Positions 1,039 to 15,998 of a DNA stretch of 64,000 bases are shown piece after piece. The DNA lies in NCBI GenBank assembly GCA_019096195.1, contig JAGTXK010000139.1, forward strand, positions 62,001 through 126,000. The letters run 5' to 3'. The notes under the pieces were generated by a model, which was given only the letters and a program-made list of their open reading frames with translations, was not told the DNA's origin and searched no databases. This stretch comes from Boletus sp. NGJ. Its lineage: Eukaryota; Basidiomycota; Agaricomycetes; Boletales; Boletaceae. Within the stretch, counting starts at the first letter, position 1. Each line of letters begins with the position of its first letter. Made by a program: the position numbers and the translations under genes.

Positions 1039-3884
1039 ATGTCCATTCGTTATGCTTTCGTCACGCTGCTCACCTCCGACGCCTACCTGCCAGGCGCACT
1101 CACCATCGCTGGCGCACTGAAGGATGTTCATCGTCTCCTCCCATCAGATCAAACGATAGAATACGAGACCGTTTGTCTTGTTACACCAGAGACGGTCGAT
1201 GTCACCACCATCAGGGTCCTCAGGAGGGCATTCGACGTGGTTGTCGGTGTCGAAATAATCGTTCCACCTGATACCGAATCCCTGACTTTACTTGGTGCGT
1301 GTTCTTCCCTTGCATTTTATACATCACGAGTCCACACGCAGGGGCGTCATCGGATCACTTCCGCGTGGTACAATCAATTCAATCGTCCACGTGTGTCTGC
1401 CTGCTTCCAACCCACATCCGGAGCATGCATTCATGCAACGTTGTTTCCTGCCGTTTTATCACACTCTCGACATTTCTTTCAACCTGACATTGCTTTTCTG
1501 GTTCTTTAGGGCGCCCAGACCTAGATACGGCTCTGACAAAATTGCACGTCTTCCGTCTCACGCAATACTCCAAGGTAATATTTCTGGATGCGGACGTACT
1601 TCCTCTCCACCCTCTATCCCACCTCTTCCATCTCGATCATGAGTTCTCTGCCGTCCCGGATGTTGGATGGCCAGATATATTCAACTCCGGTGTGATGGTG
1701 TTATCACCCGGCACGGACAAGTTCGAAGAGCTTCGCGAACTCTTAAACACCAAAGGTACCTGGGATGGGGCAGATCAGGGTCTCCTGAACGAGTGGAGAG
1801 GCAACAATTGGAACAGACTCAGTTTCACGTACAACACCACGCCAACAGCCATCTATACGTCAGTCGTATCGGCCTTGCTGTTTTAATGGTCATCTGACTG
1901 TATCGATTTTAGCTATGCCCCGGCATATCAGCGCTTTGGATCTCAAATATCAGTCATCCACTTCATAGGCCCTCATAAACCTTGGCACTCGATCCCTGAC
2001 CGTGCGCTGAGTTCTTCTGCACAGTCCACCGACATGGTCGTGGAGTCTTCCACTGAAATTCCTGCTACCCAGCAGCATACATATAACTACGGTTCACTTG
2101 TTGACCGTTGGTACAGCGTATACGATCGGCATTACCGGTCCCAGACTACCGAACCTGTTTTTCAACCTACCAGATATACTTCTGCATGGAATGAATGGGG
2201 CCATCGTCGTGCCGTAATCGCAGGCGGAGCACTGGGACTTGAAGAGCTACGTCGCGCGGCACTTGAAGGTATGGGGGCGTCGGGAATATCGGCGCCTCGG
2301 GCCCACGGTGAAGGGGAATATCGGACCATGCCCCTTGAGGGGCGTTTTGATTTGATCCGTCCTCAAACGCGTGCGGAAAGGAAGCAGGTGCAGGCGCCGA
2401 TAGGCAGCACGGAAACACCCGATTCTACCCAGGTCCCAGCGGAACACCGCACAACCACACCAGAGCCATCTACGCCTCCCGGACAAATTCTGACACTACC
2501 ACCAGGCTCTCCTGTCAGATGGACGACGCTACCTACTCCAGGAGTCAACGATATTCCACCTGCTCCCCATGCACGGTTTGTATCTCTTCCTCCGACACCT
2601 CTCCGTTATGTCTCTGCTCCATATAAGCCTCATCGCAACACTCGAGAAGCGGGGGCTCAGACTCTTCCCATTCATTCACAACAGCGAGAATCAGGAAGGG
2701 AAGACTTGTCTATAATGCCTCTGATGCGGAACTCTGCTGTCGAGACGCCTCCCAATGTTGTTACACCCGTCCCAATGGACACCTACTTTCCCAAAGTATG
2801 GGACGTCGACCAAAATTGGTCATCGATCTCACCTTCGTCTTCTGAAACATCGTTGAGTACGATGGAGCCCAGCCCCTCCAAGCCACAGCCGACTCCAAAT
2901 GCATTTTTCACACCGTCTCTTGTGCCTGCTACTCCCGAGATGCTGCGCCCTCAAGGGCAATATCGCAACATCATCGGAGAGGAAAATGGGTCTCCCACTC
3001 CGGATCCCATAAAGGTGAAGCGCATTTTTCCGTGGGAGGAACGAGCGCGTCACGCTCCGGGGCGGGTGTTTCCCGATGAGGGGTTACCAATGACCGCTCC
3101 CTCTCATCTTCCTGCTTCTGCTACCCCCGAAAAGAAGGCTATTTTCCGTTCCCCGATCCCATCCCCCTTAGTCGGCTTTCCACCATCACTCCAGTCACAT
3201 TACCCATCGGATGGCCCTCTCATACGGAGATATGCTGGCAAGATTCCGTGGTCCGTGCCCTCTTCAAGCCCCCTTGGTCCTGAGAGTGAATCAAGCCGGG
3301 TAGAGACCAGTAGCCGAGATGGAGATGTTGAGGATGAGGTGGACTCCGAGGAAGAAACAGTGATGAGATTGCGAACGCGGAGTTCTAGCATCGGGATGGC
3401 GAGACGCACTCTGAAGTATCGTTCGGTCGGCGTGCAAACGGATCCTAGGGAAGTGCGTGAGGAGGGTATCCAAGTCACGACATTCGTACCCGTGACCGAG
3501 ATTGCGGAAAAGTTGATCTTGATGAACAAACGCTTGAGGCGTAACTGGTCAACATCTACTGGCACTACCAGTCCCCCCACTGTTACGGCAGCACATGTTT
3601 TGACTCCGTCGTTATCTCCGCCCACGCTCGATTCTTATCATTCGCTGTTGCCTTCTAACTCGCGCGACCCCAGAGCACCAACCATGTTGGCATCAAAAGC
3701 AGCCGGCGACCCAGACCCTTCCTCCGCATCCTCACCTGTTGTCTCATCCGTGGTTCTACCCTCACGTATCCGCCAAGGAGCCCGCGTATGGGATCCAGCT
3801 CGTGGTGTTGAAGCCTTTAAGCGAGGATCCGAAGAGGTTCTTACAAAGTTTATGAATATAGGTTCTCGGGGAGAACGGGCGTGA
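1039..3884 (+). CDS. GLGEN: Glycogenin, GT8 glucosyltransferase with long disordered tail
   Basis: Self-glucosylating primer of glycogen synthesis. Exons are 1039-1294, 1510-1858 and 1913-3884, giving 858 residues. The N-terminal third is a GT8 domain starting SIRYAFVTLLTSDAYLPGAL; the nucleotide-sugar/manganese DxD motif is seen as FLDADVLPL at residues 110-118, followed by DIFNSGVMVLSP and YAPAYQRFGSQISVIHFIG. After about residue 270 the chain is rich in Pro, Ser and Thr and looks disordered. The last 35 residues hold WDPARGVEAFKRGSEEVL, a conserved patch resembling the glycogen-synthase binding tail of the family. Glycogenin (GLGEN) is a known neighbour of the HD mating-type locus in Agaricomycetes, and here it lies next to the beta-flanking gene. 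Intron 1 (215 nt) is longer than most in this window. Confidence 0.93.
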
Positions 3885-4806
3885 ATCGCGCTGTGTTATG
3901 TTTACATGTACTCTAGCTCCTGGACGTCTTGTGTCTGTTTTCTTGATCTCTATCTGCATGATGGCACAATACCAACCTCATCGTCGTTTTCAAGAACATT
4001 TTCCTTTGTAATTTTCACTGTTCTCCAGCGCATTTCTGTCGCAAACGTCGTCATGGACTTGTTTCCCCAGAACTTGATCGATCTCCAAAGCCTTTCTAGA
4101 ACAACCAGCGCATTTAGTCGTCAACAGTGAAGCCTACAAGCCCGCCTACAAGCCCTGTTGACGACTTGATATGATACGATTCCACGAGATCACGAATAAG
4201 TCAAACGATTTTGATCGTCACACTAACATCGTAAACCTCTGTATTCAACGCCTAGGAGGATAAGTTGCTAGTTCCGATGGACTTGTCCACAACTAACCTG
4301 ATTTTCTGGTTCCTACCAGGCGGCTGCCCCTGCCGTAGTCGAAGCACCAATGTTCTGAACCGCGTGGGCTACAGGTAGAAGAACTACCAAAAAGCCACAG
4401 AGAAAGCGGGTCAAGTGGTTCAGGTACGTAACTTGCATGGGGAGAAAAGTCCCAAATTGCTACGCCGATTCTTTCAGAAAGTTGGGGATCATCCAGAACG
4501 ATCTCGCACACTCTCTTTTCAACTACCAGTGGAGGGACACACAAGAGTGGTGTCTGACCTTGTCTGCTGGGTTCCTGCTTTATGGCACCGCTTGAAAAGT
4601 CCTTTCTGCCACGTCGGATATTTGAACGTGCGCTGAGTGGATGTACAATACACTACATGAGAGTGGCTTGAGCGCTATTCGGCTAGTCCATATCAGCTGT
4701 CAGCCCGTCTTGTCACCCCAGAATGGAATATCATGATGCAGTGCGCTCTGGGCACTATAATAGCGGGATGTCATGACAATGTTCGGTTGCTGATAGTGAT
4801 ACTACC
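3885..4806. other. Intergenic, glycogenin to beta-flanking gene
   Basis: About 920 bp with no convincing gene. It holds the glycogenin 3' region, a small tandem repeat (4132-4155) and an AT-rich ctataatag at about 4755-4763, some 45-50 bp upstream of the beta-flanking start codon, which could serve as a TATA element. Confidence 0.4.
4132..4155. repeat. Two-copy 12 bp tandem repeat
   Basis: The 12-mer GCCTACAAGCCC occurs twice in direct succession with no mismatch. It lies in the spacer between glycogenin and the beta-flanking gene. No function is evident. Confidence 0.7.
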
Positions 4807-5717
4807 ATGGTGGGTCGAAACGCACATCCGCTTCTCGCTTGTTAACTCGTGTCTAGTCGTCCCTTTTCGGTCTCGCTGAGCAAGTCCTCTCTGTTGCTAC
4901 GGGTGGAGATTCTTCAGAGTCCCAGCCTCAGCGTAAGTCCCTGCTTATAATTGCCTCGGCTGATCGATCATCTGCGATCAGATACCGTTCACAAGACTGG
5001 CGGACAGGAATACAATACACCTCACCACAGGCAGCAACCACAGGGCGGTTGTGAGTAGTCCCTTTCACCTCAAGGATCACAGCCGATAACAACGATACTC
5101 ATAGTCAACACACAAGAGGTGCTGTCCCACGCAGGTGACGTCGACGAAGAGGACCAAGGATACATTGCAAACGCTATCCGGCACGTCCACAGTAATCCCG
5201 TGCGGACGCCGATTTCTTATCTGACACGAGGCTGATCTGAACGCATCGGAACTCCCACAGCAACAACATCACGAGGAGGTGGATGAGGGTGATTTGTCCA
5301 AGTATGGCCCCATGGTCCTCAGCGTACTGCAACAAATATTGTTCCATGACTTTAGCTAAAGTGTTGAATAGGCTCTCTCTTCTGTCAGCTCGAAATCTGG
5401 AATTGACGTCGGCTCCCTCATGTCGGGTGGCCTGGGGGAAGGTGGAGGAAACCAGCTCATGGGTCTGGTCATGAAAAAAGCGGGGAATGCCTTTGTCGGG
5501 GGAAGTGGCGGGGACAAACAAAGCGCTATGAATGGCGCTGCGATGACTCTTGCGAAGCTCGTGGCTCAGAAGCAACTTTCCGCATTCATTGGGGGATCGA
5601 ACAGCGGAGGACTTAGTATGATGGAAGTCGGGAAAACGGTGAGCGTGTACCGCCTTTTTTTTTGCGTCCCTCACGTTGATGGATTCCGTATAGTTGATCA
5701 AGAGCCGATTCGCGTGA
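4807..5717 (+). CDS. beta-fg: Beta-flanking protein of the HD mating locus
   Basis: Conserved fungal protein of unknown biochemical function that marks one border of the agaricomycete A (HD) mating locus. Seven exons give a continuous 198-residue frame: 4807-4809, 4857-4932, 4982-5050, 5105-5199, 5261-5323, 5372-5638 and 5694-5717. The first exon is just the ATG. The protein begins MSSLFGLAEQVLSVATGG, has an acidic middle (HEEVDEGDLSKYG) and ends in the family's hallmark Gly/Ala/Ser-rich block with NGAAMTLAKLVAQKQ and GGSNSGGLS. Use of the acceptor at 5371, not the more pyrimidine-rich one at 5388, is needed to keep frame. All introns are GT-AG. Identification rests on the C-terminal block and on position: it separates glycogenin from the HD2 and HD1 genes, as in other Agaricomycetes. 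Confidence 0.85.
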
Positions 5718-6214
5718 CATGGACATGTTCTGATATTTCTGCTTTCTTTGTGAAGTGAACCAGTAGTAGGAATTAAGCAAATTACAAGCTAGATCTGGCC
5801 CTTGAAATTGAAATCGAGATGCCACATTCGAAGTAAGCTCGATCGCACGCCAATTAAAATGACAGTACAAGTTCTTCCGTGATGGAAAGTGGTAGAAATC
5901 AAGAGTGTCGCCGTGCATCATCAACATTGAGAGTTGGTAAATGACACAAAGTTTGTCTCGGCTGTTGTGCATACTATGGCAGTACCGAGCCTATGTAATT
6001 GCAGCGAAACGTGGCAAATGGGAACTCTAGTAGCGATGCAGCCCAGAGAAGGTCGAAACGAGGCCTAAGTCAGCGAAAAAATTGTACAAGCCGACAGAAG
6101 TAGCCAGATGGATGTCCTGAGCAATGTATCACCGCGATTTTCCGCGAGTGACATAGGCCAGCTCTGGGTCCCGTACCGGGGATCGAGAATCATAAAGACT
6201 GGCCTGAATAGAGT
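5718..6214. other. Intergenic, beta-flanking gene to HD2-a
   Basis: About 500 bp between the 3' ends of the beta-flanking gene (plus) and HD2-a (minus), so convergent 3' regions. No coding signal, RNA gene or repeat is evident; the open frames here are short and show no family resemblance. Confidence 0.4.
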
Positions 6215-7876
6215 CTATGGCCTTGAAGGGAGTTCCTGAATAGCTGGACAGGGTGGTTGTGGTGACAATGAATGAGAGGTGAGTGAGCCAGGGCATGGCA
6301 CTGGAGATAATGCCTCTCTTCCGTGATCGAAAGAATCCGACAAGGAACGCAAGGAAGAGCAAGGAGACGGTGTGGAAGACGATACATCCGACGTAGCTGG
6401 TGTCACATTGCGACATGTGAGAGATCGACGAGGATGCCGTTTGGGCAGAGGAGAAACCTTCCGCCGATAAGAGACGTCGTTTTCTGAGTGGGGGGGCGGT
6501 GAAGTAGGAATGGATGATCCCGTAGACTTGATGAAAACTTGTGAAGTCGGCTGCGATGCCCGAACTATGGGGAACGGCGACCGACGCGCGAAAAAAGACA
6601 CGTCTTTGGTCGGCTTAACCAAGGCTGGATGTGGTGCCGGAGGAGGCGAGACAGCAACGAAGCACGTGGCAGAAACTGAGTCCTGAATTCCCCCACGATT
6701 TCTTCGAGATCGCTTGGAGTATATGTCTCTCACGCTAAGGAGAGCAAACCGATCCACTAAATCGTTGATGTCGGTCTTGGCAGTTTGCAAGGAGGTATTG
6801 TGATTCGGATGCCTCTTCCATTGAAATGCCGGAAATTTTTGATCACGCGATTCGAGAGGGAATGGTTGATAAGCGCAAGCTGGAGGGTATGGAGACGGGA
6901 AGGCATGTAGTGGTGCAGTACACCTATCAAGTACGTTATTATCTTCTGTTGAGGAAGTCATGCAATCCAACACTGTTTCGGAAGAACATTTCTATGGAAT
7001 CTTTGAGTGTGTGGGACTTGGACTAAATGGAGTTGCGTACCATCGACATTGACTGACGATCATCGGAGTGGTTCGATCGAGAAGCTTCATGAGGCGGAGA
7101 AGAGTTTTGTTCAGTGCGAACAGTATACTTTCCCATGCGCTCGCGTAGGCTATCAAGCGGGAGAGTTGCGCCTTCACAGGCGGGTTTTTTTCTCCAAGTT
7201 CCGTTCGGTTTCTTTGTACGATTCCTCCGGTTCTGGAACTGCGGGACATGAGTATAAATTCCTCAATCAACATCACGCATACCCAAACATGGATCTGTCG
7301 GTATGTCATGCCAGACTTCTTCGCGAGAAAGACTTTGTCCGCATGAGTAGGAAACTGGTTTTCGTTAAAGAAGTGTTCCAGAAAGGGAACATAATCCTAT
7401 GTTGACATCCTTGAGCCTTAGCACAACGGAATAAAGATGGGACAAACTGTGTTGAAAGCTGGTCGGAGGTTAGTACTCCTTGAAGCATGATCATTGCTAG
7501 CCACCTGTTTCGCTGGCTTCTGGCGACTTTGATATGCAGCCACACCATCTTCTATCCATGACTTGACTTTCGTCAAGTACAGACTTGCAAATTTGTCCAA
7601 GATCCGCTTCTCCACATCGTGAGGGAAAGTGAAATCATTGAGTGCAACAAAAGCATTGTTAATGGAGCTTTCGTAGTATGACCGAAGTTCCAGAGCACGA
7701 GCATTGTAAGCACGATCCATTTCTTTCGCAACCATTTTTTCTGCTCCGATAGCAATAAGAGAGGGGTATAGAGAGGGGGGATCTGGTAAGCAAACTCGTG
7801 GTAGTTGTACACTGGCATGTTGGAAAGTATCGCGAACAATGTTTCCTAATGTTGGAAGGTCGGCAGCGATAGCCAT
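6215..7876 (-). CDS. HD2 mating-type homeodomain protein, copy a
   Basis: Homeodomain transcription factor of the HD2 class; in this fungal class it pairs with HD1 from a different mating type to switch on dikaryon development. Exons on the minus strand are 7448-7876, 7283-7396, 7041-7238 and 6215-6991, giving 505 residues. The homeodomain spans about residues 140-200 and reads AFNTDYVPFLEHFF, THADKVFLAKKSGM and YRQIHVW|FQNRRNRTKK, with an intron splitting the recognition helix after Trp. It is a standard-spacing homeodomain with the WFQNRR signature of HD2 (HD1 has WFANARR). The N-terminal 140 residues carry the family's dimerisation region (LPDPPSLYPSLI, ARALELRSYYES). The C-terminal half is Ser/Pro-rich. 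It is divergent to HD1, with a DNA element 117 bp upstream of its start. No breaks are visible. Confidence 0.92.
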
Positions 7877-7993
7877 GGCGTTGGATGTAGAGAAGGTTTG
7901 TGAAACAAAGCTGCCCTGTACTGAGCGCTGTGACTATTTTGATGTGTTTGCCGGCAAAATGTTACCATTGTGCTTAGTCATCCTCACTGAAAA

Positions 7994-8021
7994 TACTGTA
8001 GCCGTCTGTATGGAAGCAACC
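7994..8021 (+). repeat. Left terminal inverted repeat
   Basis: A 28 bp sequence that is the exact reverse complement of 8816-8843. It begins 117 bp upstream of the HD2-a start codon. Confidence 0.9.
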
Positions 8022-8076
8022 GGGTGGGAGTGCGTTACGCTTACCCCTGACTCCGTGCTTAGCAACCGGACCCCCA

Positions 8077-8106
8077 TTATGCGTTATGTTGCCATTGTTA
8101 GCAACC
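8077..8106 (+). repeat. Subterminal repeat, left copy
   Basis: A 30 bp unit matching 8690-8719 at 27 of 30 positions in direct orientation. Its second half, GTTGCCATTGTTAGCAAC, is a near-palindrome that could form a small stem-loop. Confidence 0.85.
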
Positions 8107-8689
8107 TGGTGGCCGGTGCTGGCGTTATGGGGGAACCTTTAGCAACCAGACTCAGACTTGGACTCGGAGTAACAGTATATGGTTATATAGGAATGGACAT
8201 TCTATGTCATTATTGTAAACAGAATGATAGTACAGCCATGAGCGAAATTTTCAGAAAATTTGTACCAGCACTTCGTACTGCTATGGACTTGTAGCTCAAC
8301 TATGACCTCTCCGACTCACAAAGGCCCATCCTCAGAACTCATCTCACGGATCCATCATCTACAGAGTTTGCTTGAACACCTTCCGAATATCGCACTCACT
8401 CCACACTCCACAAAGAGATCGAAGATCGGATGGGTGTTGTCCATGGACTCAACGACTCTGTGGACTGTGATGATGACGATGATGACGCCAATGTCCCATC
8501 GAGTGCGGTGATTCACGATGCCCTTGGCTTAGATGTGGCTCAGATTCCTGCCGAGGTGGACAGTGCCCCACTTTGTGTTCAAAGCACAGTAAAAGGTCCT
8601 AACAATTCATTGGAGGCTGCAGGGGAGTACAAGGACATCTGGGCTTTTATTAACTTCAATGAATGCTTGTAACTACCTTTTATCCACTG

Positions 8690-8719
8690 TTATGCGTTAC
8701 GTTGCTATCGTTAGCAACC
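8690..8719 (+). repeat. Subterminal repeat, right copy
   Basis: Second copy of the 30 bp unit. Here the palindromic half is better: GTTGCTA and TAGCAAC flank a short loop (8701-8718). Repeated subterminal motifs of this kind are commonly transposase-binding sites; that role is inference here. Confidence 0.85.
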
Positions 8720-8815
8720 AAGCTGGCCAAGTTGCGTGACGCCAGAAAATTTTAGCAACCAGCACACCGTTATGCGTTATTTTTAGCGACGCAACCACCT
8801 AGCGTTACGCGTTAC

Positions 8816-8843
8816 GGTTGCTTCCATACAGACGGCTACAGTA
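8816..8843 (-). repeat. Right terminal inverted repeat
   Basis: A 28 bp sequence that is the exact reverse complement of 7994-8021. It ends 258 bp upstream of the HD1 start codon. Confidence 0.9.
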
Positions 8844-9101
8844 GCACGTAAACAGAGAAAAGTTAATCGTTACAGTACGTCGTATAATGCTACAGAGGTT
8901 GAGTCAAGTAATTGGCTTTTCGTCGACGTATGAGTTCGTCCAAGTGGCACTGTGACAGTCTTTGAAAGGTATTTAGATCCACGGATTCTCCTGTTGCCCT
9001 GACTAAGCACTGAAGTAGATGGTTTTGAGGTCCGCATTGTCTTCGAGCGCTACAGCAGTAACTTAGTGACTCGTGCACCTTTCAACTGTGCTCTCACAAT
9101 C

Positions 9102-10929
9102 ATGGACGCCAAACTACTTGGAAAACTCTCTCGCGCCGAAGAAGATCTCGTATCTGCAATGCTGACCGGAGACGTGGGGCTTGTGGCTTATGATATCGCC
9201 TGGACATCACTTTTGGACGAGATCTCTCAAGCATCAGCTTCCGGAGAGATCAACAGTACTACACTTGCTGTCGCGGACGACGTAGTGGCTCGGGTCTCAA
9301 CACTCGTAGAGTGTTGCCTCACGTTATATTCCGTACCTCCTCCCTCACTCCCCATCCTCAACCTAAATACATGCTCACCCTCACTCTTCCACTCCGCCTC
9401 TTTCATCCCTGATGCGTATTCTTGGCTCCTGGAGAACGTCGCAAATCCCTATCCGTCATCGGAGTTCAAAGTATCTCTAGCTCAACGATACAACACCCCC
9501 GTCTCCGCGGTCAGCTCATGGTTCGCTAATGCACGACGGCGAATTGGCTGGACAACGTTGTGTCGCGATTTCTTCCGTAATTGCCGAGCGGATGCTGTGG
9601 ATGCTGCGTACCGCGTGCTAGTGATGGGAGATCCAAATCACCAGGGCCCCGAAATTACTCATGCTTTTGTGGCCATGAAAGTCACGGCAGAAGAGCTCTA
9701 TGCGACTTCTACGAAGAGTGCTCTTGCTGGCGATATCGATACTGTTCTGAAGGACATGCTACCTGAAGACAAAGCATTTGCAGGGGACGGCGGGCGCGGT
9801 GGGATCAGAAAAATAGTGTGTTTGAAGACGCGAAAGCATTCAACACCCACGCTGGACATATCGTCACAGAAAAACTTGGCGAGGCAAAATCCCCCATCCG
9901 ACCTCTCGTATGCTTCAGTGCCAGTACCCGGTTTCGATGACTTTCTCACAGACGAGAATGAGGATGAAGAAGATACATCGCCCCCATTATTAGCTAGTCG
10001 CAAACGGCGTTTGTCGCTTTTTGAGCCAGTGAGCGTCGCTAGTTACGGGGTAGCCACAGGATCCGTGAAGCGTCCGCGGTACGTCGCTGTCCTCATTGTC
10101 TTTGCGTTCCCTAACCATTTTGCCCATCCTACCCTAGCCTCTCTTCGTCACCCAACGCTTGTCTACCATCCACATCGACAAGCACAGAGGATCCATTAGA
10201 AAATGGCTCCCAAGGTCAGATATCGCGGTCTGTTCCAATCACCGAGGATTTGACAAATCCCAATACGCACAAACGACGCCTATCCAATGTAGACGCGATT
10301 GGGTTGCCAAAACACCCGCGAGGTTCGACGGCTGGACCACGCTCTCATGCCGTTTCGGATCCTCTTCCACTTTCCACCCTGGAAAGTGAAATTTCTATCG
10401 ACGAATGGTTTAAAACCAATTTTGATGCTCTATTCACCCTCCCACCGCCAGTTGACGTCGCCGAACCTGACCTTTCGACGCAGTGGGAAGTTGAGTTATT
10501 TAATAACTACAGTATACCTGAAAACCCACAGAAGGTTCTTACCCCTCGTGAGTCCGTGTCTTCCTTTCTGGGATGCTGTAGCCAACGTTTGACATCTTGC
10601 TAGCTATCGAAGACAATCAACTATCGTCGTCTACTGATTTGACTGCACTTGACGACCTTTTACAATCTCTTGAAAGGGGTGGATTTGTCGCACCTCCAGA
10701 GATAATGCAACCGCCCACAATGGCTTCAGTCTCTGACCCTGTGTCCCAAAGCATGCCGCTACTGCTGGATCTTTCGCAGACCATAGATTGGACTGCATTC
10801 CTCAACGAAGACCCTCCTCAACCTACCCGCGATCCCATATTTCCTCAATCCTATGTCAACTCTGCGCTTCCGGACATTGATCTCTCTGTTCTACATCCTC
10901 CTCATGTTTGGACTACGGTCAGTTCGTGA
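9102..10929 (+). CDS. HD1 mating-type homeodomain protein (TALE type)
   Basis: Partner class of HD2 in mating-type control. Exons are 9102-10078, 10138-10547 and 10604-10929, giving 570 residues; both introns are GT-AG and keep frame. Translation starts at the ATG at 9102 (MDAKLLGKLSRAEEDLVSAM); the N-terminal 90 residues resemble the HD1 dimerisation region. The TALE-type homeodomain, about residues 100-150, shows NPYPSSEFKVSLAQRYN and SSWFANARRRIGW, and is followed by CRADAVDAAY, typical of HD1. Basic clusters (SRKRRLSLF, SVKRPR, THKRRLSN) could be nuclear localisation signals; HD1 is usually the partner that supplies these. The C-terminal region has acidic-hydrophobic stretches (IDEWFKTNFDALF, IDWTAFLNEDPP) that may be activating. 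It is divergent from HD2-a and tail-to-tail with HD2-b. It is the only HD1 in the window. Confidence 0.93.
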
Positions 10930-11527
10930 GCCACATCAGGGCGTTATTACTGGGGCATTGAAACTGTGTCAGTGTCACGTGTTTAATTTTGCAACAGACA
11001 GACGAACATTATCCTGTATCATATATCTTTATTGCTATACCTATTTCGCTCATCACACGCTTGTACTCTATCATGATCACATTGCGTTGGCTTGGAGATT
11101 CTGTCATTGATGTCGTGCTGATACTGAGCGTCCTGTCAATTACAAAATACTTAAACAAGTTTCACGGAGGATACACATCGGCATGATGAGGCATAAAAAG
11201 CATAATGCCCATTATCAAAAAAATAAAATACAGCTCAGGCGGATATCATGTACGCCATGACACAGAGCGCTCAAGTGGGCGACACCCGAGTCCTACTTCC
11301 ATGTGCTGCCACGGATCGCTCGCCAAACTGGGGCCACGGCAGGGAGCAACCATCGTGGACGGTTCACAGTTCAGTTTTCGCGTTTCCGGTCAACTTCGCG
11401 TGCCGTGTGTGACCCCCGTGTTTCAGTCTCCTTATGTAACCGGACCTGAGGGGGGTGGTAACCGGGAACACAAGTGCGAGGCATTTACCACGCTGGGAAT
11501 CGACAGAAAAGAGCTATCGCGTGCTGG
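10930..11527. other. Intergenic, HD1 to HD2-b
   Basis: About 600 bp between the convergent 3' ends of HD1 and HD2-b. It is AT-rich near 10980-11220. No coding remnant of another HD gene could be recognised in either strand. Confidence 0.4.
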
Positions 11528-13253
11528 TCACGAAACGGACGAGGAGATTGCAACCATATCTCCCAGACCACGGAGATGAATTGGACTGTCAGAAGGCGAG
11601 CGACATGGAGACCCGAATGACTGCGGTAGTTCCTGAATGCTTGCTACGTCTGATGGCGTGGACAATGAACTGACACTTGAAAGAGAACAGCTACTACTTT
11701 CAGGGTTCGTAGAGAACAAGCAAGGCGAGGAGGAAGACGTCGAGGAGCTATCTGACGGTGTGGCATCTCGGCGACTGTTCCGCACTCGGCCGGGAAAGCG
11801 TTGCGGTAACGGAGCAGTCTTCCGCTTCCTAACGAGCTCGCTCCTGTTGGGTGGGACCAAGAGGGGTATCAATGTAACAGGTTTCAAGGTAGGGCTGGGA
11901 CTTTGGAATCCTTTCGAACAGGAGATAGGTGCGCGGACTAATGGGTGAAGGTGAACGATATTCGTTGGTTGGATATACTTGCGGACTATCAGGGACGGAT
12001 GAGGTGCACGAGACGGTATAACAGTAATTGCGACTGTCGCAGCATGTGATTGCAGCTTGGGAGATCCCCTAGAGCGTGTTTCATCTCGAACATTTAAATG
12101 AGAAAACGCCTCGGCTAGGTCGTCGATGCTGGTCGGGTGAGAAAGTGGGGATTTCCCGCACGACACGCGCCTCCATTCTGGCTTGCTGAAACGAACAGGG
12201 CCACTTTTACAGGGGAATGGATCGTAATGGCAGGTAGGTGGATAAGACGACGGAAATGCGTGGGATGGCGAAGATGATGTAAAGGCACCCTCCGACACGT
12301 TAATCCGCGCGGTTTCTATCTACCGGGAAATGAGAACACAGATTTGTAGGGTAGATGAGACAGAGCATACCCCAGTTGCTCCCTCCGATGAACCCCCTTT
12401 GGAGGGTTTTGAAACTTGAGAATTAGAGTCGACCATGTAACCTTTCATGCGATCGCGGAGTTTGTCCAGGGGTTTCGTTGCCCCCTCGTATACCGGTTTC
12501 TTTCTCATCGTTTTGCCCTCCTTTTTGGAGCGACTACGGCGATTCTGAAACTAAATAGAAACATTATTAATTAAGGACATGAACGACATTTAAACGAGAC
12601 ACTCACCCATACATGAATTTGCCTATATTCCATGTTCGACTTCTTAGCGAGGAATACTTTGTCTGCGTGTGTCGGAAAAGGGTTTTCTTCAAAGAAGTGC
12701 TCCAACAGTGGAATATACTCCTGTCGAATGTTGTCAGAAAATGCAGTAACAGAATGATCGTAGCGTTTACTTGGTTAAAGGAACGGGAACTCTTTGGAGC
12801 TGTCTTAGTAGGTGTCTTCGGCGCTTGCTTGACGCGCTGAATGACCTCTTCTCTCCACAGTGCAAGACGGCGGAGATATATTTCCGTGAACGTGGATACC
12901 ACCTTGCTCACTAGCGGGTCTGGTGATGAAACCGATGCACCAGGGAACGGTGCCATCTGGAGACACGCTGTGGTGACAGTCTGTTCAATATGTTGTTTAA
13001 ACTCTCCCGCACGTTGCTGATATATTTTATTAGCTGCAGTTGCGATTTCATGACTAACGCCTGCCTCGAGAAGTGAGGGCAGTAGCGGATGTGGGCTTGG
13101 CAAGCTGATCGAGTCGACTATGGTGAGAGGGTCACTGGATGTAATGGTTTGATGGCAGGATGAGTATGATGCGGTCGCCTTTTTCAATTCGTTCGCTATG
13201 CGCAAGATAGATTGCACATGAGCAACCGCTACGTTGTTCGAGTTGTGATCCAT
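11528..13253 (-). CDS. HD2 mating-type homeodomain protein, copy b
   Basis: Second HD2-class homeodomain protein. Exons on the minus strand are 12771-13253, 12607-12720, 12371-12550 and 11528-12319, giving 522 residues. The homeodomain, about residues 158-215, reads SFNQEYIPLLEHFF, THADKVFLAKKSNM, YRQIHVW|FQNRRSRSKKEGK. The 38-residue second exon matches that of HD2-a at 31 positions, and all three intron positions and phases are the same, so the two genes are paralogues. Shared C-terminal pieces include HAFPS.YPP and a Ser-rich tail with IQELP. The start chosen (MDHNSNNVAVAHVQS) is the first ATG of the frame close to the homology. It lacks an adjacent HD1 partner: its upstream neighbour, 231 bp away, is the 3' end of MIP on the same strand. 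No breaks are visible. Confidence 0.92.
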
Positions 13254-13484
13254 ATTCGGGGTGTGGGTGTGAGTAGTAGGTGAACAGAATCTAACAAAGG
13301 CGAGGATATGCATCTCAGGCTTCAGACTCCATTGTGCTTATGTAACAAAATATTTCGATGTCCGACCTGTGCCCTACTCAAGATACTTTTGGTCTCTGTT
13401 ACGCTACTAGTAGTATTTTTTCAATGAAGCCAACAATATTAATATGTCGTTCATGAAGAAAGGTGTCTACTCAGCATGACGCCC

Positions 13485-15998
13485 CTAGTGTCTTTCTGAT
13501 ACAGGCCCATCCTCTACTCGCCATCTCCCAACCTCTCGCATCGCCTCCTCGTCGCCCACCTGAAGACGTGGTGCGTTTAACAATGCACCAAGCATCTGCC
13601 AAGGGTCCTTGCCACCACCGTATCGTAGAATTTCTGCTTTATACTTTTCTCCCAGTTCGCGATTCAGCGGTTCGGCCGAAAAAACCTTTCGCCAGACACG
13701 CGATGCGATCGCGCGGTCAAACAAATATGAGTAGTACGTTGCCCCGTACCCGTACAAGTGACCAAATTGGGTCTGGAAGGATGTTCCTGCGGCGTGAGGG
13801 ATGAGGCCGCGCGTGTTGCACAGGTTCGCCAGGGCAGCCGTTGAATCGAACCCTGGTTCGAGAACGGCGGGGGAGTGATACATCTGATCTAGTACAGAGA
13901 GCAAGATAGTGCCATGCGTGTCGATAAACGTGCACGGATCTTCGTGGTGGTTGCCAGTCTGACTTGAGATCGAGGAACCGTCCGCTTCGAAGAGGGAGAG
14001 GACTTTGGGCGAATTGAGAAAGTATTCCATGAGGATAGATGGCAACTCCACAAAATCAGTCGCGCAGCGGGTGCCGGCAACGTTGTGATACTCTGTTCGA
14101 CCGATCATAGCTACGGCGTCATCATCAGCGCCACCGATGAGAGCTATGTGACGAAAATGACTCACAATGCATGGCGTGGCCCATTTCGTGAAATAGGGTC
14201 TGCACCTCGTGCCATTCTAGAAATGTGGGCCCCCGGGCGATCGTGGGGCGAGTGAATTCACACAAGAGGACGACCAAAGGAAGCTGGTACTCTCCACGCA
14301 CACCGCGGAGCTTGTGCCGTTTGATAGCCTCGAAACTTTGTGAAGGAGCAAGAAAGTCCTCGGACCCTTCGACAGTGAGATCACCGCTTTCGTCGTCGTC
14401 GTCGGTCCGCCGGGAACAGCGGACTGTGTAGTGGGCTGCGCCGCACGACTTCCCGTTCCGAGCGAAAAGGTCCGCATATACCCATCCAATGACGCCAGAG
14501 TCCTCGTCCACTACTTCAAGCTTGTGGACATCAGAGTGCCAGACCTCGCCAGAGGCTACTTCGGCCGGCCGCAACGATATGCCATAGAGATGCTTGAAGA
14601 GCCGTGACAGCCCCATGAAAACGCGTCCGAGAGAAAGTGGGGGTAATGGTACGGGAGGTTCGGGCGGCTCAGGCGGGCAATAGAAGGATCTATCCCAGGC
14701 TTGTATGATAGGAAGTGTCCGAGTGTGAAGGTGTGATTGTTTTCGTAATCTGAGTGTATGCAAAGCACTGCGAGCATGAATAGCTGTTTGATCTAGGAAT
14801 GTATCCAAAAACTGTCGGACATTCTCTGGGATTCATCAATACGTGTCAGGGAGTGCTACACAAAGTACTCGTCAGAAACTGCTCACCCGGTGTTTTTGCC
14901 ATCTTGTCGTTGAGAGTCATACCGGCATAACTATCCCATCCAACAAGTCGGGCAAGTTCAGCGCGTGCATGTAATAGTCGCTCTAAGCATTCTATTTGTC
15001 GTTGACTACTGGCATGTGCAGCCATATAGAGCTTTTGTCGTGGAGATTCGTTGGGAGCAGATGTCACAATCATATATGCTTGGTGAGAGCCAGGATATAC
15101 AAGAAGACTCTTCTGAGTAGACCATGCCTGCCGACGGAGCCGCGCACCCATCCCCTCGTCCTTCAAACCATCTAATTCCGACGGTTCGATGACGGCTGGG
15201 GGACGCGGGGCAGACGCCTGAGTGACGAACTCGTGGCCAAGGGTGAGAATTTCGGAAGACAAGGAAACAAATCGCTCTCTCTGTTCGGGAGGCAACTTGA
15301 TGGCGGATTTTTCAAAGTCTCTCCAGAAAATCAAGGCTGTCTGAAAAGCCTCCTGACTAAGAGACCGGACGACTTCGGGGTCATGGAGAACCGTGCGCAG
15401 AACCTATGACGACATTAGCAACCACTGGTGAGAGAAGACATCGACTCGCCTCGTAGAGACCAACATGGGTGTTGAGTACATTCATGTACTCGCAGAGTTT
15501 CTCGTAGCTGTTGTTGGCGCACTGAACCCATCGAGGGTCGGGGTGGGCGTTTCGGAGAAGCTCTGCAAGGTCGATAACGCCACACAGCAGGTCGCTGAGC
15601 CTGTCTAGGTTCTTGACCACCTTGAAGAGCTCGCACCGTGATTGGTTGGCGCGTAAGATGCGCTCGGTCAACAGCTGTGCGCGTACGAGGGTAGACTCGG
15701 CTAAGGCGTCGAAGGCTGCAGGGGTGGACAACTCTGGGTGTCGGAAGATGCCTGAGACGGACAGTGGTTGGGACTGCCTGCCGTTCTGAGGTTGATCGAA
15801 AAGAGAGACGAGTTCTGCATCGTCCGACGAGGGAGGGATCGTCAACAAGGTGGTTGCTTGGCGGTGGAGGGACCGAGGACGACCACGAAAGCTGCGAGGC
15901 GGACAGGGTATTTTTCGCAAGACATTTTCAGTGATTCGGGGAATCATCACGGCCGCACACAACCACGCTCGGAAACTCTGCCAACTTCGTCCAATCAC
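13485..15998 (-). CDS. MIP: Mitochondrial intermediate peptidase
   Basis: M3-family zinc metallopeptidase that trims an octapeptide from imported mitochondrial precursors in the matrix. Exons on the minus strand: 15450-15998, 14887-15403, 14166-14825 and 13485-14110, giving 783 residues. The zinc motif HEMGHAMHS spans residues 568-576 and is interrupted by intron 3 within the final Ser codon; it is followed by the family block [20 protein letters not shown]. The first 50 residues are rich in Arg and Ser and fit a mitochondrial presequence; an internal Met 18 codons in could also start the protein. Intron 1 (15404-15449) has a GC donor (GCGAGT) rather than GT. MIP is the classical flanking gene of the HD mating locus, and here it directly follows HD2-b. 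Confidence 0.95.

What the first reader, a model, noticed from the sequence alone, without database searches (positions are those of the whole stretch)
4807..15998. HD mating-type locus with two HD2 genes and one HD1
The window holds a whole HD mating locus between the beta-flanking gene and MIP. Its make-up is unbalanced: HD2-a and HD1 form a divergent pair, but HD2-b has no HD1 beside it. Either an HD1 partner was lost, or HD2 was duplicated and moved to the MIP side. Both HD2 genes keep intact frames and homeodomains, so both could be active. If both serve the same HD1, they should differ in specificity, or self-compatible dimers would form.
Basis: partly seen in the sequence, partly recalled or inferred. 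Interest (0 to 1): 0.85.

Follow-up and report, generated by a model that had tools for sequence, protein, structure and literature searches.

The report
Mushroom mating locus missing one partner
This is a real mushroom mating-type locus in which one of two gene pairs has lost half of itself; what looks like the other version of the locus, in the same genome assembly, still has the missing gene, and the same kind of loss has been published for other mushrooms.

Summary
Between a flanking gene (beta-fg by position) and MIP lie HD2-a (6215-7876, minus), HD1 (9102-10929, plus) and HD2-b (11528-13253, minus), all with open spliced frames and homeodomains. HD2-b starts 231 bp from the MIP stop, with no HD1 trace found between.

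An 11,939-bp contig (C132) of the same assembly matches both flanks of the locus at 98%, so it is most likely the other haplotype. There the allele of HD2-b (HD2z) stands in a divergent pair with an HD1 (HD1z) next to MIP. So HD2-b's partner was most simply lost from the window haplotype. HD2-a is a distant paralogue (24% N-terminal identity), not a recent duplicate. C132 mirrors the window: a lone HD1 at the beta-fg side, a decayed middle pair, a whole pair at the MIP side.

Best reading: two paralogous HD pairs; each haplotype keeps one whole pair and an orphan. The same reciprocal state is published for Agaricus bisporus; lone HD genes are described in Flammulina, Trichaptum and Hypsizygus. 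Known kind, new example. Extra details: a very recent 850-bp transposon-like insert in the HD2-a/HD1 promoter, and a mosaic-looking HD2-b.

The parts
1488..1886 (+). exon of a glycosyltransferase-8 (glycogenin-like) gene, outer neighbour of the locus
   Evidence: Pfam PF01501 E 2.9e-11
5372..5718 (+). last exons of the flanking gene, called beta-fg by position; C132 matches 5279-5721 at 98%
   Evidence: no Pfam match; end of gene read by eye
6215..7876 (-). HD2-a, 4 exons (7448-7876, 7283-7396, 7041-7238, 6215-6991), 505 aa
7994..8843 (.). 850-bp transposon-like insert with perfect 29-nt terminal inverted repeats, in the shared HD2-a/HD1 promoter
9102..10929 (+). HD1 (HD1a here), 3 exons (9102-10078, 10138-10547, 10604-10929), 570 aa
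11528..13253 (-). HD2-b, 4 exons (12771-13253, 12607-12720, 12371-12550, 11528-12319), 522 aa; no HD1 beside it
13254..13484 (.). 231-bp gap between HD2-b and MIP, where the other haplotype has HD1z; no HD1 remnant found
13485..15947 (-). MIP, mitochondrial intermediate peptidase-like (peptidase M3); C132 matches 13485-13654 at 98%

Best explanation
One haplotype of an ordinary Agaricomycete HD (A) mating-type locus built from two paralogous HD1-HD2 pairs. The beta-fg-side pair is whole (HD2-a/HD1a); the MIP-side pair has lost its HD1 and keeps HD2-b as an orphan. The other haplotype (contig C132) has the mirror state: a lone HD1 at the beta-fg side (HD1x), a decayed middle pair, and a whole MIP-side pair (HD2z/HD1z). 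Shown: gene content, open frames, near-identical flanks on both sides, no HD1 beside HD2-b. Inferred: C132 is the allele; the HD1 was lost rather than gained; after mating HD2-b pairs with the other nucleus's HD1z and HD2-a with HD1x; inside one haplotype HD1a pairs neither with HD2-a (same allele) nor with HD2-b (other pair). The dimer would then switch on the dikaryotic programme as in other mushrooms.
For: C132 ends match the locus flanks at 98% over 443 and 170 bp, same order and orientation, with exact matches of 75 and 148 bp at its two ends. Inside it HD2z is the closest relative of HD2-b in the C-terminus (79%) at the corresponding place and stands divergent to HD1z next to MIP. HD2-b N-terminus differs from HD2z (44%) as alleles of different specificity do. 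HD2-a is far from the other three HD2 (N-terminus 24-27%, C-terminus 37-40%). Homeobox_KN search of the whole assembly gave 11 matches: 3 on C130, 6 on C132, 1 each on C35 and C3. The same reciprocal make-up is published for Agaricus bisporus (section 3.3 read).
Against: Allelism is inferred from flanks: no reads, no segregation. The grouping of HD1 genes is weak (C-termini 51, 49 and 48% alike; homeodomain 70, 60, 56%). HD2y is of the HD2-b group but lies on the beta-fg side of the middle relic, so the history is not a clean two-pair scheme. HD1z is open only if one extra 55-nt intron is assumed; otherwise it stops after 290 aa. No clear second pheromone-receptor haplotype was found, which a mated tetrapolar dikaryon should show. 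A published survey that included Boletales found single HD pairs except in C. cinerea.
Confidence: 0.75

Rival explanations
1. Gain, not loss: HD2-b beside MIP without an HD1 is the old state, and the C132 haplotype gained HD1z.
For: Two haplotypes alone cannot polarise the change; no HD1 remnant is left beside HD2-b.
Against: An HD1 directly beside MIP, in an HD1/HD2 couple, is stated to be the rule in most known basidiomycetes (PMC3140503, passages). HD1z is a diverged gene, 46% like HD1a and HD1x, not a fresh copy.
Confidence: 0.08
2. Recent duplication of HD2: HD2-b is a copy of HD2-a moved to the MIP side and serves the same HD1.
For: Both are HD2 genes with the same four-exon layout.
Against: Identity 24% N-terminal, 39% C-terminal; synonymous sites saturated or near so in all four parts (pS 0.69-0.90). 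HD2-b is far nearer to HD2z and HD2y.
Confidence: 0.02
3. Phase switch in the assembly: the true haplotypes are HD2a-HD1a-HD2z-HD1z and HD1x-HD2y-relic-HD2b, so the count of two HD2 and one HD1 in one nucleus is an artefact, though HD2-b is alone at MIP either way.
For: In the 91% stretch after HD1a the two versions share exact matches up to 73 bp, enough to mislead a short-word assembler.
Against: 73 bp is short for an assembly with contigs of about a megabase; the assembly method is unknown to me.
Confidence: 0.1
4. C132 is not an allele: both versions sit in one nucleus (a duplicated locus, or a self-fertile strain).
For: No read depth was available; no clear second pheromone-receptor haplotype was found.
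Against: C132 is a 12-kb contig that ends on both sides inside the near-identical flanks, as the second arm of a heterozygous site would; a linked or dispersed duplicate should carry some other neighbouring sequence.
Confidence: 0.07

Closest known systems
Agaricus bisporus MAT locus, H97 and JB137-S8 (PMC8305134, section 3.3 read; other passages)
   Same: Two paralogous HD pairs; one haplotype has a whole pair plus a lone HD2, the other a lone HD1 plus a whole pair; sharp fall of identity at the flanking genes; an N-terminally truncated HD2 in the second haplotype; a transposable element with inverted repeats in the first.
   Different: There the whole pair of H97 is on the mip1 side; here it is on the beta-fg side and the orphan HD2 sits at MIP. 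There the haplotypes come from two varieties; here from one assembly.
Flammulina velutipes matA3 (PMC3140503, section 19 read; passages)
   Same: One HD1 and two HD2 genes; the lone HD2 lies 201 bp from MIP with no HD1 there (231 bp here).
   Different: In Flammulina the two parts are 73 kb apart and no beta-fg was found near the HD genes; here all is within 8 kb.
Trichaptum MATA (PMC8970355, section 7 read; passages)
   Same: Absence of one of two bHD genes, an extra truncated HD2 in six strains, same flanks (bfg, glycogenin, MIP1).
   Different: Inversions of bHD2 are common there; none is seen here.
Hypsizygus marmoreus MAT-A (PMC8686365, section 12 read; passages)
   Same: Three to five HD genes between Mip and Bfg, with presence/absence differences among haplotypes.
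   Different: The smallest type there has two HD1 and one HD2; the window haplotype has two HD2 and one HD1.
Schizophyllum commune A-beta (PMC12193891, passages)
   Same: Several linked HD1-HD2 pairs; only head-to-head partners work together.
   Different: Both pairs are whole in the strains described there.

Membership tests
Agaricomycete HD (A) mating-type locus | HD1 gene with TALE-like homeodomain and HD1 C-terminal domain | tested here: met
   Homeobox_KN E 5.6e-14, Mating_C E 2.6e-21
Agaricomycete HD (A) mating-type locus | HD2 gene(s) with homeodomain split by an intron | tested here: met
   second intron lies in the homeodomain, before FQNRR, in HD2-a and HD2-b; Homeodomain E 3.1e-13 and 9e-14
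Agaricomycete HD (A) mating-type locus | MIP on one flank | tested here: met
   Peptidase_M3 on three of four pieces tested
Agaricomycete HD (A) mating-type locus | beta-flanking gene on the other flank | tested here: inconclusive
   gene present at the right place, no Pfam match; name rests on position
Agaricomycete HD (A) mating-type locus | alleles strongly diverged inside, near-identical at the flanks | tested here: met
   98% at both flanks, HD2b-HD2z N-terminus 44%, if C132 is the allele
Agaricomycete HD (A) mating-type locus | HD1-HD2 dimer of different alleles triggers sexual development | not testable with these tools
   no bench data
Two-pair HD locus with reciprocal loss (Agaricus bisporus type) | one haplotype has a whole pair and the lone HD2 of the other pair | tested here: met
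   window: HD2a/HD1a and HD2b
Two-pair HD locus with reciprocal loss (Agaricus bisporus type) | other haplotype has the lone HD1 of the first pair and a whole second pair | tested here: inconclusive
   C132 has HD1x and HD2z/HD1z, but HD1x's membership of the HD1a pair is only weakly supported (homeodomain 70% against 60 and 56%; C-termini 51, 49, 48%), and a decayed HD2y/HD1 relic is there too

The most novel reading that the evidence does not exclude
Reciprocal loss has left a one-way division of labour: in this dikaryon each within-pair HD dimer must take its HD1 from one nucleus (C132: HD1x, HD1z) and its HD2 from the other (window: HD2a, HD2b), so the two nuclei have fixed, unequal roles. 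Since the same state is described in Agaricus, one-way haplotypes may be a repeated or stable end point of HD-locus decay.
Probability: 0.3. Interest if true: 0.5.

Novelty: new member of a known kind. Interest (0 to 1): 0.32.

Why it matters
Both versions of an HD locus, most likely from one dikaryon, show how such loci lose genes: one has a clean loss of an HD1, the other shows the wreckage of rearrangement (HD2 and HD1 pieces fused). The case predicts which nucleus supplies which partner, which can be tested. It does not change the known picture of mushroom mating loci.

Tried and rejected
Recent HD2 duplication: rejected on identities. HD1 remnant beside HD2-b: looked for, not found; a 17-nt, 88% inverted repeat between HD2-b's second intron and the gap before MIP was put down to chance without a test. 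A missing HD1 elsewhere: the genome-wide Homeobox_KN search (13 candidates, 13 scored, 11 matches at E up to 1) gave C130, C132 and one homeobox gene each on C35 and C3; the best matches of those two to the seven HD proteins lie in the homeodomain (L010 E 0.005; L001 E 1e-5), so I do not take them for mating HD genes. This search goes exon by exon and scores only the best candidates.

Species: the one 5.8S hit is a decayed copy. Its spacer looked bolete-like from memory only, so Phlebopus portentosus was checked in two papers (passages) and dropped: its assemblies have 12, 62 or 108 contigs, and one HD1 and one HD2 per haplotype are described. The species stays unknown. A paper search for a 32.8-Mb bolete assembly found nothing.

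Pheromone-receptor locus: 24 STE3 matches on C56, C102, C73, C16 and C59; C16 (60.8 kb) holds a receptor piece 77% like one on C56 amid sequence also found on other contigs; a simple CaaX scan of C56:98000-115000 gave one odd short frame that overlaps a receptor. No clear second haplotype, nothing concluded.

Not done: trees with other species (no fungal sequence collection is held that I could scan), expression, complex prediction. I do not claim that anything here is unpublished.
Full report
What is there. The window is G000:C130:62001-126000 of a 32.8-Mb, 141-contig assembly. Between a flanking gene, which ends at 5718 (read by eye), and MIP (13485-15947) lie three homeodomain genes. HD2-a (minus, 6215-7876) has four exons and 505 aa; HD1a (plus, 9102-10929) three exons and 570 aa; HD2-b (minus, 11528-13253) four exons and 522 aa; none has an inner stop. 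Splice sites were placed by hand on the frames and are not backed by transcripts. Pfam finds Homeodomain in the two HD2 proteins (E 3.1e-13 and 9e-14, first three exons given) and Homeobox_KN plus Mating_C in whole HD1a (E 5.6e-14 and 2.6e-21). Three exons in HD1 and four in HD2 is also what is reported for Trichaptum (PMC8970355, section 7 read). MIP pieces match Peptidase_M3 in three of four pieces tested. The left flank has no Pfam match and is called beta-flanking gene by position; beyond it is a glycosyltransferase-8 gene (E 2.9e-11), in line with bfg and glycogenin flanking MATA in Trichaptum (passages).

HD2-a and HD1a diverge from a 1225-bp gap; HD2-b's start is 231 bp from the MIP stop. 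tblastn of the seven HD proteins and blastn of the other version find no HD1 remnant in 13200-13520; the only hits are HD2-b's own start and MIP's end.

The other version. A genome-wide search for Homeobox_KN gave 11 matches: three on C130 (the three genes here), six on an 11,939-bp contig C132, and one each on C35 and C3. C132 matches the window at both ends: its 11497-11939 to window 5279-5721 and its 1-170 to window 13485-13654, both at 98%, in the same order and orientation. Exact matches of 75 and 148 bp run to its two ends. No other contig among the 69 matches covers these flanks, though that search scores only the best candidates. I take C132 as the other allele, kept apart by the assembler because the inside is too diverged. 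A 12-kb piece to the right of the locus has no near-identical second copy, only two matches at 77% and 73% on C22, so the rest seems collapsed.

Read in the window's orientation, C132 holds: the flank; HD1x (plus, 570-2322, 550 aa, open); HD2y (minus, 3144-4636); a relic in which a 213-bp HD2 3' end (4859-5071, 83% to window 11474-11694) is fused to a broken HD1 piece (5072 to about 5900, with stops and frame shifts), itself fused to the 3' half of an HD1 91% identical to window 9924-11080 (5902-7078); HD2z (minus, 7553-9257, 515 aa, open); HD1z (plus, 9432-11494); MIP. HD1z is open (633 aa) only with one extra 55-nt GT-AG intron, which holds a CTAAC branch-like motif (consensus recalled); without it the frame stops after 290 aa. 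HD2y lacks a proper start: upstream of its first in-frame ATG the match to HD2-b goes on but with indels and stops, so about 45 N-terminal residues are missing.

Who is whose allele. Amino-acid identities by region: HD2b-HD2z 44% N-terminal, 84% homeodomain, 79% C-terminal; HD2b-HD2y 63, 93, 59; HD2y-HD2z 48, 89, 60; HD2a with the other three 24-27, 80-84, 37-40. So HD2-b, HD2z and HD2y form one group and HD2-a stands apart. HD1a, HD1x and HD1z are 46-51% alike overall. HD1a-HD1x is somewhat closer in the homeodomain (70% against 60 and 56%) and at synonymous C-terminal sites (pS 0.56 against 0.74 and 0.76), but not in C-terminal protein identity (51, 49, 48%); HD1z has a longer C-terminus and the extra intron. 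The broken HD1 piece is nearest HD1x (78% of 67 residues, against 63% for HD1a and 66% for HD1z). This suggests two ancestral pairs: a beta-fg-side pair (HD2a with HD1a/HD1x) and a MIP-side pair (HD2b/HD2z with HD1z). Against a clean scheme: HD2y is of the MIP-side group but lies further left, and the HD1 grouping is weak.

HD2-b is not a recent copy of HD2-a, and its likely allele has a divergent HD1 partner next to MIP. An HD1 next to MIP is described as the usual order (PMC3140503, passages). Loss of HD1 in this haplotype is the simplest reading; gain in the other is not excluded.

Are both HD2 genes alive? The frames are open, and changes in the homeodomain are mostly silent (HD2b-HD2z pN 0.068, pS 0.735; HD2a-HD2b pN 0.115, pS 0.904; 45 codons each). 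That shows constraint in the past, not expression now. The 850-bp insert (7994-8843) with perfect 29-nt terminal repeats sits in the HD2-a/HD1a promoter, 117 bp from HD2-a's ATG and 258 bp from HD1a's. It has ten more full-length or nearly full-length copies among the matches (nine at 98-100%, one at 88%); of seven compared base by base without gaps, three are identical at 850 of 850, three at 838-840, and one (opposite in part, 849 bp) could not be compared that way. Whether it disturbs the pair is unknown.

Mosaic HD2-b. At sites where one of HD2b, HD2y, HD2z differs, HD2-b agrees with HD2y at 57 N-terminal sites and with HD2z at 38; in exon 4 the counts are 35 and 168 (Fisher p 3.7e-13 for the contrast). 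The N-terminal preference by itself is modest, and sites are not independent. HD2b-HD2z synonymous divergence is 1.13 in the N-terminus and 0.24 in exon 4. Either old specificity regions are kept while the C-terminal part is exchanged between alleles, or N-termini were swapped between related genes.

How it likely works. In mushroom loci HD1 and HD2 of the same allele do not pair, and a dimer forms after mating from different alleles (stated in PMC10598064, passages). In Schizophyllum A-beta only the head-to-head partners R-S and V-Q worked although structure prediction allowed four combinations (PMC12193891, passages). If the grouping above holds, the window nucleus gives HD2a and HD2b and the C132 nucleus gives HD1x and HD1z, so each pair makes one working dimer, always HD1 from one nucleus and HD2 from the other; HD1a and HD2z would have no within-pair partner across. 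This last step is inference.

What is known. [quoted passage not shown] Flammulina matA3 has one HD1 and two HD2, the lone HD2 201 bp from MIP (PMC3140503, section 19 and passages). In Trichaptum absence of one bHD gene is reported among strains, and in Hypsizygus 52 complete loci fall into types with three to five HD genes (PMC8686365, section 12 read). By contrast, a comparison including Boletales found single pairs except in C. cinerea, which had two pairs and an extra HD1 (PMC5473757, section 13 read). So this is a new, well-preserved example of a known kind.

Caveats. Phase within the locus is unproven: in the 91% stretch the versions share up to 73 identical bases, and a switch there would exchange the right halves. 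HD2-b would still be alone at MIP, but the counts per haplotype would change. The species, the strain's nuclear state and expression are unknown, and no clear second pheromone-receptor haplotype was found.

Noticed in passing
7994-8843: 850-bp element with perfect 29-nt terminal inverted repeats (ends TACTGTAG...CTACAGTA, perhaps with TA target duplication), identical at 850 of 850 positions to 3 of 7 genomic copies compared: a very recent insertion in the HD2-a/HD1 promoter.
   Followed up: partly
11528-13253 (HD2-b) against HD2y and HD2z of C132: HD2-b looks mosaic: N-terminus nearer HD2y, C-terminus nearer its positional allele HD2z.
   Followed up: partly
C132, reverse complement 4859-7078 (L022/L023): Fusion of an HD2 3' end, a broken HD1 piece and the 3' half of an HD1 91% like the window's: a rearrangement scar inside the other version of the locus.
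   Followed up: partly
G000:C56:100502-111683: Cluster of several STE3-like pheromone receptor genes; no clear second haplotype elsewhere, which could mean a bipolar species, a collapsed assembly or missing sequence.
   Followed up: partly
G000:C81:1729574-1729740 (L026): The only 5.8S rRNA match listed is a copy decayed by what look like C-to-T and G-to-A changes, as from repeat-induced mutation or methylation.
   Followed up: no
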